64,000 nt of DNA, taken from assembly GCA_022842935.1 (NCBI GenBank), contig JALHOP010000004.1, forward strand, positions 62,001-126,000. Direction: 5' to 3'. The notes below the pieces were generated by a model. The model searched no databases. It saw only the letters and a list, made by a program, of their open reading frames with translations, and was not told the DNA's origin. This document shows, piece by piece, positions 32,315 through 63,753 of this stretch. Position 1 is the first letter of the stretch. Each line of letters begins with the position of its first letter. The DNA is from Myxococcota bacterium. GTDB taxonomy: Bacteria > Myxococcota > XYA12-FULL-58-9 > JALHOP01. The position numbers and the translations under genes were made by a program.

Positions 32315-32401
32315 GGGCTGCTCCGATTCCCCGCTCGGGAGCGATAGTATCGGTCGCCTCGGCCCCAGGTTTTGTGACCGTTTGGCAGCGGTCAAAACGA
32401 A

Positions 32402-32436
32402 AAAAGCCGCGTCGCTTCGTGAGCCACGCGGCTTTT
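32402..32436 (-). terminator. Intrinsic terminator after rplC
   Basis: AAAAGCCGCGT (32402-32412) and ACGCGGCTTTT (32426-32436) form an 11-bp perfect stem with a 13-base loop. On the minus strand the stem runs into a T-run. It lies 23 bases after the rplC stop, making rplC a one-gene transcript. Confidence 0.88.
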
Positions 32437-32458
32437 CGCGATGCAATGCCCGAGGCGA

Positions 32459-33148
32459 TTAGGCCTGCGGATTGAACTTGATGGCTGGGCGGATGACCAC
32501 CAGCGAGCCCTTGCTCCCCGGCACCGAGCCATGGAGCAGGACGACGTTTTGCTCGGGGCGAACCTCGGCGATGCGGACGTTCTGGGTGGTGACGTTGTCG
32601 TCGCCCATGTGACCCGGCATGCGACGGCCCTTGATGACACGACCTGGCCACTTACGGCAGCCGATCGAGCCGCCGTGGCGGAAGTACTCGTGCGTACCGT
32701 GCGAGGAGTTGAAACCCGCGAACTTGTAGCGGCGCACGACGCCCTGAAAGCCCTTACCTTTGGTGCGACCCGCAACGTCGACGAGGTCGCCAGTCTTCCA
32801 CTCGACGTCCTTGAGCGAGATCTCGGCGCCGACTTCGAACTTCGACAGGGTCGCGTCGCTCACGCGGAGCTCGCGAACGAAGCGGCGCGCTTTCTCGTTG
32901 CCGCCCAAAGCCTTCACGACGCCCTTCTCGGGGCTCGAAAGCAGACGCTCTGGCTTGTTGCCGAAGCCGAGCTGGAGGGCGGTGTAACCGTCGGTACGGC
33001 CGTTCTTGTTGGTGGCCTTGGTGCGCTTGTTCATGACCAGGTTCGGACCGAGCTCGATGACGGTGACACCGATCGCGGTGCCCTCCGAATCGAACACCTG
33101 GGTCATACCGAGCTTGCGACCAATCAAACCGAGCTTACGCTCTTTCAT
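32459..33148 (-). CDS. rplC: 50S ribosomal protein L3, displaced from the S10 operon
   Basis: The 229-residue protein is a full-length L3, which organises 23S rRNA near the peptidyl transferase centre. Family segments include L-G-L-I-G-R-K-L-G-M-T-Q-V-F at the start, K-G-F-Q-G-V-V-R-R, H-G-T-H-E-Y-F-R-H-G-G-S-I-G and the G-R-R-M-P-G-H-M-G loop. In most bacteria rplC lies between rpsJ and rplD. Here those two genes (62774 and 63121) are adjacent without it, and this is the only copy seen. GGAGG precedes the ATG by about 8 bases. It has its own promoter and terminator. Confidence 0.97.
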   Translation of the reverse strand: MKERKLGLIGRKLGMTQVFDSEGTAIGVTVIELGPNLVMNKRTKATNKNGRTDGYTALQLGFGNKPERLLSSPEKGVVKALGGNEKARRFVRELRVSDATLSKFEVGAEISLKDVEWKTGDLVDVAGRTKGKGFQGVVRRYKFAGFNSSHGTHEYFRHGGSIGCRKWPGRVIKGRRMPGHMGDDNVTTQNVRIAEVRPEQNVVLLHGSVPGSKGSLVVIRPAIKFNPQA

Positions 33149-33215
33149 CGTACGAACCTCCGGGACACACGATTCACCTTACGGCAAACGGTTGGTCCCA
33201 CGTTGTAGGGCGCGC

Positions 33216-33244
33216 GGAATACGGGACGGGAGGCGATTTGTCAA
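33216..33244 (-). promoter_or_regulatory. rplC promoter with consensus -35 box
   Basis: On the minus strand a perfect TTGACA (33244-33239), a 17-base spacer and TATTCC (33221-33216) are followed at once by GCGCGCCC. The predicted start is near 33209, giving a leader of about 60 bases. The GC-rich stretch after the -10 box is shared with the rpsL and rpsJ promoters. Confidence 0.7.
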
Positions 33245-60379: not shown

Positions 60380-60738
60380 CGTGAGTCCCCCTTTTCGCGG
60401 GCAGCGGGGACTTGGCGCTCACGTCCGGTTCGCAGGTTTCGAGCCCTACCGAGGGCCCGTGTGAGATTGAACGTCGCCCGGTCGAGCGCCACGTCCACGG
60501 CGGCTTTCAGGCTAGCGGCGCGCTCATCGATCAAGACCGTGACTCCGGTCCGCGCGACGATCATGAGATGGCACGCGACATCGACGCCGCCGCGTGGTCC
60601 GTTGATGTCCCGGACACGCGCCCTGACCACATGAATCTGCTCGTAGAAGCGACCCAGCCCCGAGGCAATGCGCTCCTCCAGGTCGACGCGTTCGGTGGGA
60701 GTCAGCTCGAGCTCGGTGCTACGCACTTCAATCTTCAT
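60376..60738 (-). CDS. HPF/RaiA-type ribosome-associated protein
   Basis: The 120-residue protein resembles the sigma-54 modulation/S30AE family that binds idle 30S subunits at the A and P sites. It has the start M-K-I-E-V-R-S, an L-E-E-R-I-A-S-G-L-G-R-F helix and strands A-R-V-R-D-I-N-G and C-H-L-M-I-V. The C terminus is short, so it is not the long dimerising HPF. GGAGG precedes the ATG at 60738. It is divergent from a NhaR-type regulator 118 bases away. Confidence 0.78.
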   Translation of the reverse strand: MKIEVRSTELELTPTERVDLEERIASGLGRFYEQIHVVRARVRDINGPRGGVDVACHLMIVARTGVTVLIDERAASLKAAVDVALDRATFNLTRALGRARNLRTGRERQVPAAREKGDSR

Positions 60739-60856
60739 CTCTAGCCTCCGCCGGGGCCGCCATTGGCCATCGTGCAAAGCGAATATCCGCCTCACGAAGG
60801 ACGTAGGCCATAACGAAAGGTTGAAGAGTAATGTAATTAAAAGCTACGGTCGGGGT

Positions 60857-61759
60857 ATGGAGTGGCTCAACTACCACCACCTTTTCTATTTTTGGGTCAT
60901 TAGTCGCGAGGGCAGCCTCACGGCCGCCGGGCGAGTGCTGCGGGTATCGCACGCGACCTTGAGCACGCAGGTCAAGGCGCTGGAGGCGAGCCTCGGGCAC
61001 GAACTTTTCTCGCGCACCAAGGGGCGCCTCGTGCTCACCGTCGTGGGGCGGCGCGTCGCCGAATACGCCGCCGAGATCTTCGGTCTCGGGCGCGAGCTGC
61101 TCGACGACGTTCGCCGCGGGGCCGAAGCGCCGCGGTTACGGGCTTTTCAGGTCGGGCTCACCGAGTCGGTTCCGAAGCTCGTCGTGCGCAGACTCCTCGA
61201 CCCAGCCCTTCGGCTCGCTGACCCTGTGCGGCTCGTCTGCAAGGAGGCCGAACAAGGAGCGTTACTCGCCGAGCTCGCCCGCGGCACCCTCGATCTCGTC
61301 ATCGCAGACGCCCCGGTACCCCCCGGAAGCGCCGTCAAAGCGTTCACGCACGTCCTCGGCGAATCGGCCATGGGATGGTTCGCGAGTCCAGCCCTCGCAG
61401 ATCGCATGAGCGGAAAGTTCCCTCGAGCACTCCAAGGAATGCCGGTCTTGTTGCCGCTCGACGGCACGCCGCTGCGTCGCGCCATCGACCAGTGGCTCAG
61501 CGAGCATGATCTGCAGCCACGCATCGTCGGCGAGTTTCAGGACAGCGCTCTCATCAAGGCCTTCGGCCATGATGCGATCGGCGCCTTTCCGGGCCCCGTG
61601 GCGGTCGAGGCGGAGGTCGCCAACCTCTATGGGGTGTCCCTGCTCGGCACCATGCGTGGCGTCTCCGCGCGGGTGTTCGCCATTTCTGCAGAGCGTCGCG
61701 TTCGTCATCCGGCCGTAGCGGCCATCGTCGCAGGCGCGCGCGACGAGCTACTTGCTTGA
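60857..61759 (+). CDS. NhaR-type LysR transcriptional regulator, second copy
   Basis: The 300-residue protein starts E-W-L-N-Y-H-H-L-F-Y-F-W-V-I-S-R-E-G, very like NhaR and the copy at 54070. The helix-turn-helix reads V-L-R-V-S-H-A-T-L-S-T-Q-V-K, and the effector domain has G-L-T-E-S-V-P-K and A-D-A-P-V-P. It is divergent from the HPF-type operon, with an AT-rich patch (about 60826-60846) between them, a typical LysR arrangement in which it controls the divergent genes. Confidence 0.9.
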   Translation: MEWLNYHHLFYFWVISREGSLTAAGRVLRVSHATLSTQVKALEASLGHELFSRTKGRLVLTVVGRRVAEYAAEIFGLGRELLDDVRRGAEAPRLRAFQVGLTESVPKLVVRRLLDPALRLADPVRLVCKEAEQGALLAELARGTLDLVIADAPVPPGSAVKAFTHVLGESAMGWFASPALADRMSGKFPRALQGMPVLLPLDGTPLRRAIDQWLSEHDLQPRIVGEFQDSALIKAFGHDAIGAFPGPVAVEAEVANLYGVSLLGTMRGVSARVFAISAERRVRHPAVAAIVAGARDELLA

Positions 61760-62139
61760 GAACCCATGGGCGCGGTGCGGACGAGCCCCACACTTAGGTG
61801 AAGCTCGCCGCACCGCTCGAGGGACCGCGGCGCGTGTGCCCCTACGCGCCAGCGGGCGAAGTTCGCGCGCCGCATCCACGAACGGCGCAAGCTTCGCTGC
61901 GACTCTCAACTTGAATGGTATTTCGACGACAAGGTCAAAATGACTCCACGTTCGGCCAGTTCGTTGTGGTGATATCGGCCGATCGACGCCAGGGTTGCCC
62001 CGTAAAAGAGCGACTTTTTGACACCAGGGATCGCTTGTCCGCTAAAGCGACCAGGGGCCTCGCGACCAGCGCCATAGGCACCAAATCTGTGGCGCTGCCG
62101 ATAAGCAAAGATGCCGCCGATACAGGGCAGGGTTTGGCC
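61760..62139 (+). other. Non-coding region with hairpin and candidate promoter
   Basis: About 380 bases have no secure gene. A hairpin of about 13 bp with one bulge (61773-61786 with 61803-61815) follows the LysR gene without a T-run. TTGACA (62018-62023) with TAAAGC (62043-62048) is 19 bases apart, a weak promoter for the next gene. TTGTCCGCTAAA at 62035 is one of three copies in the window. Confidence 0.5.
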
Positions 62140-62568
62140 GTGTTGTTTGCAAGCCTCGTCATGACCGTCAGCCTCGCCGCCAGCGAAGACGCACGCTTTC
62201 ACCTGTTGGAGAGCCAACTTAGGGTGGCAGACCAGGCGCGCGCAGCGCCGGCCAGCACGACGTGCCTGACCCTCTACCCCAAGGTGGCGCCGCCGGCGCC
62301 CGCGGCGATGGCTACCCCGGCTCCCGACGTCTCCATCAAGAAGTCACTGGCGGACGCTTTCAGCGGCCGTGGTCGCGCGACGGCATGCGTCTACGGGGCT
62401 TCGGGCGTACGGCGTCAGGACCCCCGGTTCGGTATGCGCCAGATCACCCTCGAGCTCGCAACCCCGCTTGCATCACCGGGACCCCTGCGCTTGATGCTGC
62501 GCACGGTGGTGGAGCGCTTCGCTATGGGTCGCAACAACGCAGAGGTCTACGCGGGGATCAGCTACTGA
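62140..62568 (+). CDS. Hypothetical secreted protein
   Basis: From GTG 62140 the product is 142 residues with a hydrophobic start (V-L-F-A-S-L-V-M-T-V-S-L-A-A-S), a Pro/Ala-rich stretch and a C-terminal globular part (R-Q-I-T-L-E-L-A-T-P-L). AGGGCAGGG lies upstream as a possible ribosome binding site. The start is uncertain; ATG 62161 is possible. No positive charge precedes the hydrophobic part, so export is not certain. No family is recognised. Confidence 0.45.
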   Translation: MLFASLVMTVSLAASEDARFHLLESQLRVADQARAAPASTTCLTLYPKVAPPAPAAMATPAPDVSIKKSLADAFSGRGRATACVYGASGVRRQDPRFGMRQITLELATPLASPGPLRLMLRTVVERFAMGRNNAEVYAGISY

Positions 62569-62608
62569 GCAGCGGCTGAAAAATCGACACGCTGCCGTGA
62601 AAAAGTGC

Positions 62609-62637
62609 TCGACGGGGTCCGACTGTTTTGTTAGAAG
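62609..62637 (+). promoter_or_regulatory. rpsJ (S10 operon) promoter
   Basis: TCGACG (62609-62614), a 17-base spacer and TAGAAG (62632-62637) are followed by CCGCGCCCC. The stretch GTTAGAAG plus CGCGC is nearly identical to the rpsL promoter. The leader to the rpsJ ATG is about 130 bases, long enough for the L4-type autoregulation known from E. coli, though no such structure is identified. Confidence 0.55.
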
Positions 62638-62773
62638 CCGCGCCCCTGAGTTCAAAAGGCACCCGTCCTCGTGGCGGTGATGCGGTTTGACAACGCGGAA
62701 AGCGCCGTCCGGGCGCGTGATCGAAGGCTGCTAAAGGCCCTCGAGAGCGCACCCGATGCAAACGAGAGTTGAG

Positions 62774-63106
<333 letters not shown>

Positions 63107-63120
63107 GGCGGAGCACGTCA

Positions 63121-63753
63121 ATGAAAGTCGATGTCTTCAACCTAGAGAACAGCAAAGTCGGCAGCGTCGATCTGCCCGATGACGTGTTCGGCGCCGAGGT
63201 CAACGAGACCCTCCTTTGGGAGATGGTCAAGGCCCAGCGCGCGTCGCGTCGTCGCGGTACGCACAAGACCAAGCGCCGTGGCGAAGTTTCCGGCGGTGGT
63301 ATCAAGCCGTACAAGCAGAAGGGCACCGGCCGCGCTCGTCAGGGCTCGAGCCGCGCTCCGAATCACGTCGGTGGCGGCGTCGTCTTCGGCCCCAAGCCGC
63401 GTGACTACAGCTACCGTCTCCCGCGCTCGGCCCGCAAAGCCGCGCTTGCCAGCGCTTTGTCGCTGCGCGCCAAGGGCGGTTTGGTCATCGTCGACAAGAT
63501 GGACTTCAAGGCCCCGAAGACCTCGGGCGTCGTTGAGTTCATGGGCAAGCTCGGCACGACCACGTGTCTCATCATCGACGGTGAGAACGACAACCTCAAA
63601 CTGTCGGCGCGTAACCTCAAGAACGCGAAGTACCTCTTCGCTTCTGCGGTGAACGTGTACGACATCCTCGACTACGACAAGCTGGTCATCACCAAAGGCG
63701 CTCTCGAGCAGGTCATCGCTCGCGTCAAGAGTGAAGAAGCGAAGGCGGCGTAA
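63121..63753 (+). CDS. rplD: 50S ribosomal protein L4
   Basis: The 210-residue L4 has the long extended loop near the exit tunnel ([12 protein letters not shown] and [15 protein letters not shown]) and the globular part (V-I-V-D-K-M-D-F). In E. coli, L4 also represses its own operon. It starts 14 bases after rpsJ and 11 bases before rplW. Confidence 0.98.

What the first reader, a model, noticed from the sequence alone, without database searches (positions are those of the whole stretch)
32459..33148. rplC has left the S10 operon and is a self-standing inverted gene
rpsJ (62774) and rplD (63121) lie 14 bases apart with no rplC between them, although rpsJ-rplC-rplD is one of the most conserved gene orders in bacteria. 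A complete rplC lies about 30 kb away on the other strand, with a perfect TTGACA promoter and a strong terminator of its own. L3 supply is therefore uncoupled from S10 operon control. The observation is direct; the effect on regulation is inferred.
Basis: partly seen in the sequence, partly recalled or inferred. Interest (0 to 1): 0.7.

Follow-up and report, generated by a model that had tools for sequence, protein, structure and literature searches.

The report
Relocated L3 gene with rRNA-mimic leader
In an entire bacterial phylum (Myxococcota) the gene for ribosomal protein L3 sits alone outside its usual operon, and in many families, including the window's, its mRNA starts with a small conserved hairpin that in most of them closely copies a piece of 23S ribosomal RNA in L3's home domain, so L3 probably switches off its own synthesis when in excess, a control not described for L3 in the papers I could search.

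Summary
In detail: one complete rplC lies at 32459-33148 (-), rpsJ and rplD are 14 nt apart, and the genome holds no second rplC. It is not peculiar to this genome or an assembly fault: the same detachment was seen in all 8 genomes of the class and in 29 of 31 families sampled across the phylum Myxococcota, while 63 of 64 rplC loci that carry S10-operon genes (other phyla) are contiguous with rpsJ and/or rplD. A protein tree is compatible with one ancient origin. It is conserved in all 8 class genomes, and related hairpins with compensatory changes precede rplC in many other families. A covariance model run over 195 whole genomes gave 18 hits, 15 of them directly before rplC. The hairpin's 5-bp stem, 3x1 internal loop and UGG/CCA stem match the Rfam bacterial consensus of 23S helix H96, in domain VI, where L3 binds. 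Best explanation: an autogenous L3 leader that replaces S10-operon control. L3 binding itself is untested. The class variant matches H96 less literally, and Myxococcus-like genera lack the motif.

The parts
32459..33148 (-). rplC, ribosomal protein L3 (uL3), 229 aa
   Evidence: TIGR03625 228 bits; only copy in genome
33162..33199 (-). conserved leader hairpin: GGGAC-CAA-C-CG-TTTGCC-GTAA-GGTGAA-T-CG-T-G-T-GTCCC; candidate L3-responsive r-leader
   Evidence: folds alone at -15.9 kcal/mol, z -3.44; class alignment A3 and pair counts; model R2 top hit in 7 of 8 class genomes, eighth found blind on a second contig
33157..33161 (-). Shine-Dalgarno GGAGG, directly abutting the 3' strand of the hairpin
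   Evidence: sequence
33239..33244 (-). TTGACA, -35-like box, conserved in the class
   Evidence: TTGACR in 6 of 6 class loci, 46-76 nt before the hairpin
33216..33221 (-). TATTCC, weak -10-like box (3 of 6), 17 nt from TTGACA; start near 33209 inferred
   Evidence: sequence; not reported by the consensus scan
32400..32437 (-). intrinsic terminator of rplC
   Evidence: 13-nt arms, 9-nt loop, T-run
62774..63106 (+). rpsJ (S10), first gene of the S10-spc operon
63107..63120 (+). 14-nt rpsJ-rplD junction where rplC would stand in most bacteria
   Evidence: same gene pair in the 31 junctions examined from 29 families (plus window)
63121..63753 (+). rplD (L4)

Best explanation
rplC was moved out of the S10 operon once, in or before the ancestor of Myxococcota, and has been a separately transcribed gene since. 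In many lineages sampled it is preceded by a short hairpin that copies a 23S rRNA helix just 3' of the sarcin-ricin loop (H96) in domain VI, L3's home domain. Free L3, when in excess over nascent 23S rRNA, is proposed to bind the hairpin, which abuts or nearly abuts the Shine-Dalgarno sequence, and so block translation of its own mRNA. When rRNA is plentiful L3 binds rRNA instead and translation resumes. Shown: relocation across the phylum, single copy, conserved hairpin with compensatory changes at a fixed place, near-exclusive association with rplC, likeness to the H96 consensus. Inferred: transcription from TTGACA, L3 binding, repression, one relocation event.
For: Relocation; other phyla contiguous; tree compatible with one origin (starred branches force only 1 change). 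Leader, class: invariant GGACCWAC...G.GTCC in 7 of 7 training sequences, 6 of 11 pairs with double-sided changes, 89.6% of cells paired, slides at most 59.7%; genome-wide top hit upstream of rplC in 7 of 8 genomes; eighth genome found blind, 22.8 bits. Leader, other families: 27 sequences, 98.8% of cells paired, 8 of 9 pairs with double-sided changes; 11 of 11 in families f27-f31, lower stem 100% paired, covariation 0.66 vs 0.23 in shuffles; strict descriptor 39 of 101 vs mean 0.68, max 4 in shuffles. Specificity: 15 of 18 genome-wide R1 hits directly precede rplC, one of them a contig-end fragment of rplC that the protein search had missed. Mimicry: the Rfam LSU model annotates gCGGAC-Cuc-ugG...Cca-u-GUCCGc with the same pairing; score 27.1 on the leader matrix, 0 of 300 shuffles reach it (max 13.3). 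uL3 is a primary binder important for stability of domains 0 and VI (PMC9687910).
Against: R1, built outside the class, does not find the window's class leaders, so joining the two forms rests on shared architecture and on the intermediate leader of G003 (GGGACCAAU...AUGUCCC). The window's own 23S H96 reads CGTAG-CGC-TGG/CTA-A-CTACG and is only weakly like the leaders (3.6; 9 of 60 shuffled sequences reach it). In several class members the minimum-energy fold differs or is no better than shuffles. Myxococcus-like genomes show no such motif. PMC9687910 reports that higher uL3 occupancy strengthened domain VI except H96. Part of the A2 set was chosen because it pairs, which inflates its counts. 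No binding or expression data.
Confidence: 0.75

Rival explanations
1. The hairpin is a conserved translation-initiation or mRNA-stability element, or binds another factor, and has nothing to do with L3.
For: Its 3' strand touches or nearly touches the Shine-Dalgarno sequence, so any hairpin there could tune initiation. No binding data exist; H96 may have other protein contacts, not checked here.
Against: Conservation lies in the internal loop and closing pairs, not in stability; loop and pairs equal the Rfam H96 consensus; the element is found almost only before rplC, where L3 is the only r-protein encoded.
Confidence: 0.2
2. Plain relocation: rplC drifted out of the operon and is expressed constitutively from its own promoter; the upstream conservation is incidental.
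For: Myxococcus-like and several other families keep a detached rplC without a recognisable leader. Conserved TTGACR in the class.
Against: Leader found in many families with compensatory changes and far above shuffles.
Confidence: 0.05
3. Xenologous replacement: the detached rplC was acquired from outside the phylum and the operon copy was then lost (compatible with the leader reading).
For: Single-gene tree is weak at the base; the label needs 4 changes in the best tree, with Binatota and Omnitrophota rows intermixed.
Against: Starred branches force only one change; nearly all detached copies are Myxococcota and none nests with support inside a distant phylum.
Confidence: 0.12
4. Assembly artefact or an undetected second rplC in the operon position.
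For: The assembly is a draft of 46 contigs, 97.4% complete.
Against: rpsJ and rplD are adjacent on one contig here and in the 31 junctions examined from 29 families, including single-contig genomes.
Confidence: 0.01

Closest known systems
Ribosomal protein leaders with rRNA mimicry (for example L20, S15, S4; Eckert and Weinberg 2020, PMC7247131)
   Same: Short structured 5' UTR element directly before an r-protein gene, covariation, likeness to an rRNA site, presumed feedback by the encoded protein
   Different: No L3 leader is in their Table 1 of 20 new types; here the presumed ligand is L3, the copied site is H96 of 23S domain VI, and the gene is one that left the S10 operon
L4-controlled S10 leader of E. 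coli and other gammaproteobacteria (reviewed in PMC10931766)
   Same: Feedback control that covers L3 synthesis where rplC is in the S10 operon
   Different: Ligand is L4 and the leader precedes rpsJ; in Myxococcota rplC is no longer on that transcript and its hairpin is unrelated
Other r-protein genes outside their usual clusters (general knowledge)
   Same: Single r-protein gene with its own promoter
   Different: rplC is rarely displaced: among 64 rplC loci with S10-operon genes on the contig, 63 are contiguous with rpsJ and/or rplD, the exception being an Opitutia contig with rpsJ 2.5 kb away

Membership tests
uL3 / RplC | score above the curated L3_bact cut-off over full length | tested here: met
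   TIGR03625 228.3 vs 142.9, residues 7-220
canonical S10 operon | rplC between rpsJ and rplD | tested here: not met
   14-nt junction without rplC; same pair in 31 junctions examined
ribosomal protein leader (r-leader) | located in the 5' UTR directly upstream of an r-protein gene, consistently across species | tested here: met
   7 of 8 class genomes by model plus the eighth blind; 15 of 18 R1 hits. That the hairpin is transcribed is inferred
ribosomal protein leader (r-leader) | conserved secondary structure supported by covariation | tested here: met
   partly biased by selection of pairing sequences
ribosomal protein leader (r-leader) | likeness to the ligand's rRNA site (optional feature) | tested here: met
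   Rfam LSU H96 consensus; weaker for the window's own 23S and class variant; that L3 contacts H96 was not verified
ribosomal protein leader (r-leader) | binding of the encoded protein and repression | not testable with these tools
   no binding or expression data
known r-leader or other Rfam families | match to a published family model | tested here: not met
   no match in the window; no credible match in 16 leader loci, best a miRNA model at E 0.54 not at a leader

The most novel reading that the evidence does not exclude
First L3-responsive ribosomal leader: a domain VI (H96) mimic fixed to the rplC gene of Myxococcota, which left the S10 operon in the ancestor of the phylum and exchanged operon-level control for its own feedback loop.
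Probability: 0.65. Interest if true: 0.7.

Novelty: new member of a known kind. Interest (0 to 1): 0.6.

Why it matters
rpsJ-rplC-rplD is among the most conserved gene orders in bacteria. Its loss across a phylum gives a clean genomic marker for Myxococcota and a natural experiment on how an essential early-assembly protein is kept in balance outside its operon. An L3 leader would add a ligand not in the r-leader lists I could read and a mimic of domain VI, directly testable in a reporter strain.

Tried and rejected
Second rplC in the genome (none). Misassembly (rejected by relatives). Known Rfam leader (none). Mimicry of the 23S 3'-terminal helix: considered from sequence, dropped for H96, which matches in loop geometry. 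One model for class and phylum: R1 does not reach the class leaders, kept apart. R1 finds nothing near canonical rplC of other phyla. Weaker R2 hits in G000, G005 and G007, and R1 hits in three f15 genomes, lie inside open frames and were taken as chance. The G001 C212 fragment is a weak, AT-rich rplC-like contig end, probably a contaminant. Ten literature searches found neither an L3 leader nor a report of the displacement; most subscription journals are not held.

Full report
Observation. rplC is a complete 229-codon gene at 32459-33148 on the minus strand, a full-length L3 by NCBIfam. rpsJ and rplD are 14 nt apart. The genome (6.28 Mb, 46 contigs) has one rplC and one rplD.

Not a private feature. 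The class of the window has 8 genomes held. In none does rplC stand next to rplD. I then searched 195 genomes of the phylum for both proteins, fetched regions from representatives of the families and located r-protein genes with tblastn. In all 31 rpsJ-rplD junctions (30 fetched plus the window, 29 of 31 families) S10 directly precedes L4; in all 31 rplC regions L3 is detached. Contigs shared with named records (JAHFED010000058.1, 38,005 bp, Myxococcales bacterium; JAUYRZ010000001.1, 51,878 bp, Archangium; JANQQN010000448.1, 15,874 bp, Myxococcota bacterium) identify the phylum as Myxococcota. A scan of named genomes returned 80 rplC loci: 16 without neighbouring S10-operon genes, nearly all Myxococcota or unplaced MAGs, plus one Omnitrophota; of the 64 others, from many phyla including Desulfobacterota, Bdellovibrionota and Nitrospinota, 63 are contiguous with rpsJ and/or rplD. 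An L3 tree groups detached copies mostly together; it needs four changes but forces only one. In several families an outer-membrane beta-barrel gene (TIGR04565) and TPR genes, one GltC-like but below its cut-off, lie downstream of rplC, which favours one ancestral site.

The leader. Upstream sequences of rplC showed a motif just before the Shine-Dalgarno sequence. In the class it reads GGGAC-CWA-C-[stem-loop]-Y-G-Y-GTCCC; in the window it is 33199-33162, followed at once by GGAGG and, 8 nt later, ATG. The window hairpin folds as drawn (-15.9 kcal/mol, z -3.44). Across seven class members 89.6% of pair cells are standard and 6 of 11 pairs have changes on both sides. A covariance model from these (R2), run over whole genomes, has its best hit directly 5' of rplC in seven of eight genomes; the others are weaker and lie in open frames. 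The eighth genome's rplC contig ends 16 nt upstream, but a second contig bearing an rplC start contains the leader, GGGACCAAUCGG...CAUGUCCC, which R2 scores at 22.8 bits as the best hit of that contig although it was not in the training set. There the otherwise invariant C-G pair next to the loop is U-A.

Other families. Many carry CGCAC-CUC-UGG...CCA-U-GUGCG and variants: CGGAC/GUCCG, GGGAC/GUCCC, GGAAC/GUUCC, GCAGC/GCUGC and GGCUC/GAGCC for the lower stem; UGG/CCA, CGG/CCG, CAG/CUG and UGC/GCA for the upper. A strict descriptor finds 39 of 101 upstream regions against a mean of 0.68 in dinucleotide shuffles; the descriptor was tuned on these data. In 27 sequences 98.8% of cells pair and 8 of 9 pairs show double changes (partly selected for pairing). 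Families f27-f31 have G(G/A)UC-CUC-UG...GAAU-GAYC, lower stem paired in 11 of 11 with covariation 0.66 against 0.23. Model R1 over 195 genomes gave 18 hits at E up to 0.05 (per genome): 14 precede an rplC placed by the protein search and one precedes a contig-end rplC fragment that the protein search missed. R1 finds nothing near rplC in other phyla and no Rfam family matches.

What it resembles. The Rfam bacterial LSU model, aligned to this genome's own 23S, shows just 3' of the sarcin-ricin loop the helix known as H96 (numbering from general knowledge): gCGGAC, unpaired Cuc, ugG..., Cca, unpaired u, GUCCGc. That is the leader: same lower stem, same 3x1 loop, same UGG/CCA. On the leader matrix this site scores 27.1 (best leaders 28.6), above all 300 shuffles; H96 is also the top site in the window's own 23S, though weak there (3.6). 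L3 is a primary binder important for stability of domains 0 and VI (PMC9687910); direct contact with H96 was not verified here. Eckert and Weinberg list no L3 leader among their 20 new types (PMC7247131).

Mechanism. By the logic of known r-leaders (single r-protein gene, element at the ribosome-binding site, rRNA likeness), excess L3 probably binds the hairpin and blocks initiation. Shown: location, conservation, covariation, specificity, likeness. Inferred: binding, repression, promoter use, single relocation.

Limits. R1 does not reach the class leaders, so the link between the two forms is architectural, with the G003 leader as an intermediate. Myxococcus-like genomes lack the motif and may regulate rplC otherwise. 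Families were sampled, not exhausted. The literature search covers only open papers.

Noticed in passing
L084, L224, L225, L226, L232, L233, L241 upstream of rplC: Myxococcus-like genomes (f19, several genera) lack the H96-like hairpin and instead have a short GCGC-type hairpin before GTGAGGACGAC-GTG; control of rplC there may differ.
   Followed up: partly
L081, L127, L130, L132 upstream of rplC: A further shared element ending in GTCC(A/T)ATGCGAGG (L081: GGACCAATGCGAGG) before the start codon, possibly another leader form.
   Followed up: no
L071, upstream of the leader hairpin: An extra GC-rich inverted repeat (GCGCTCCCCGTTTGGGGC) lies between the TTGACA box and the leader hairpin in G005.
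   Followed up: no
L146 and L201: An Omnitrophota MAG also has a detached rplC, and an Opitutia contig has rpsJ 2.5 kb from rplC, so displacement may have happened elsewhere.
   Followed up: no
G182 (L096): A single-contig 311,743-base genome placed in the same phylum (87% complete), strongly reduced, also with detached rplC.
   Followed up: no
window 60668-62755 and L002 16450-20000: The S10-spc operon is preceded by a LysR-type gene and not by str-operon genes, and after adk come non-ribosomal open frames.
   Followed up: no
window 32459-33148: L3 of the window's class carries short insertions (around KATNKNGRTDG and a GG before EKARR) not seen in other Myxococcota (alignment A1).
   Followed up: no
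L132 (CALQBK020000185.1): A record titled Bifidobacterium breve carries a Myxococcota-like detached rplC; probably a mislabelled or mixed bin.
   Followed up: no
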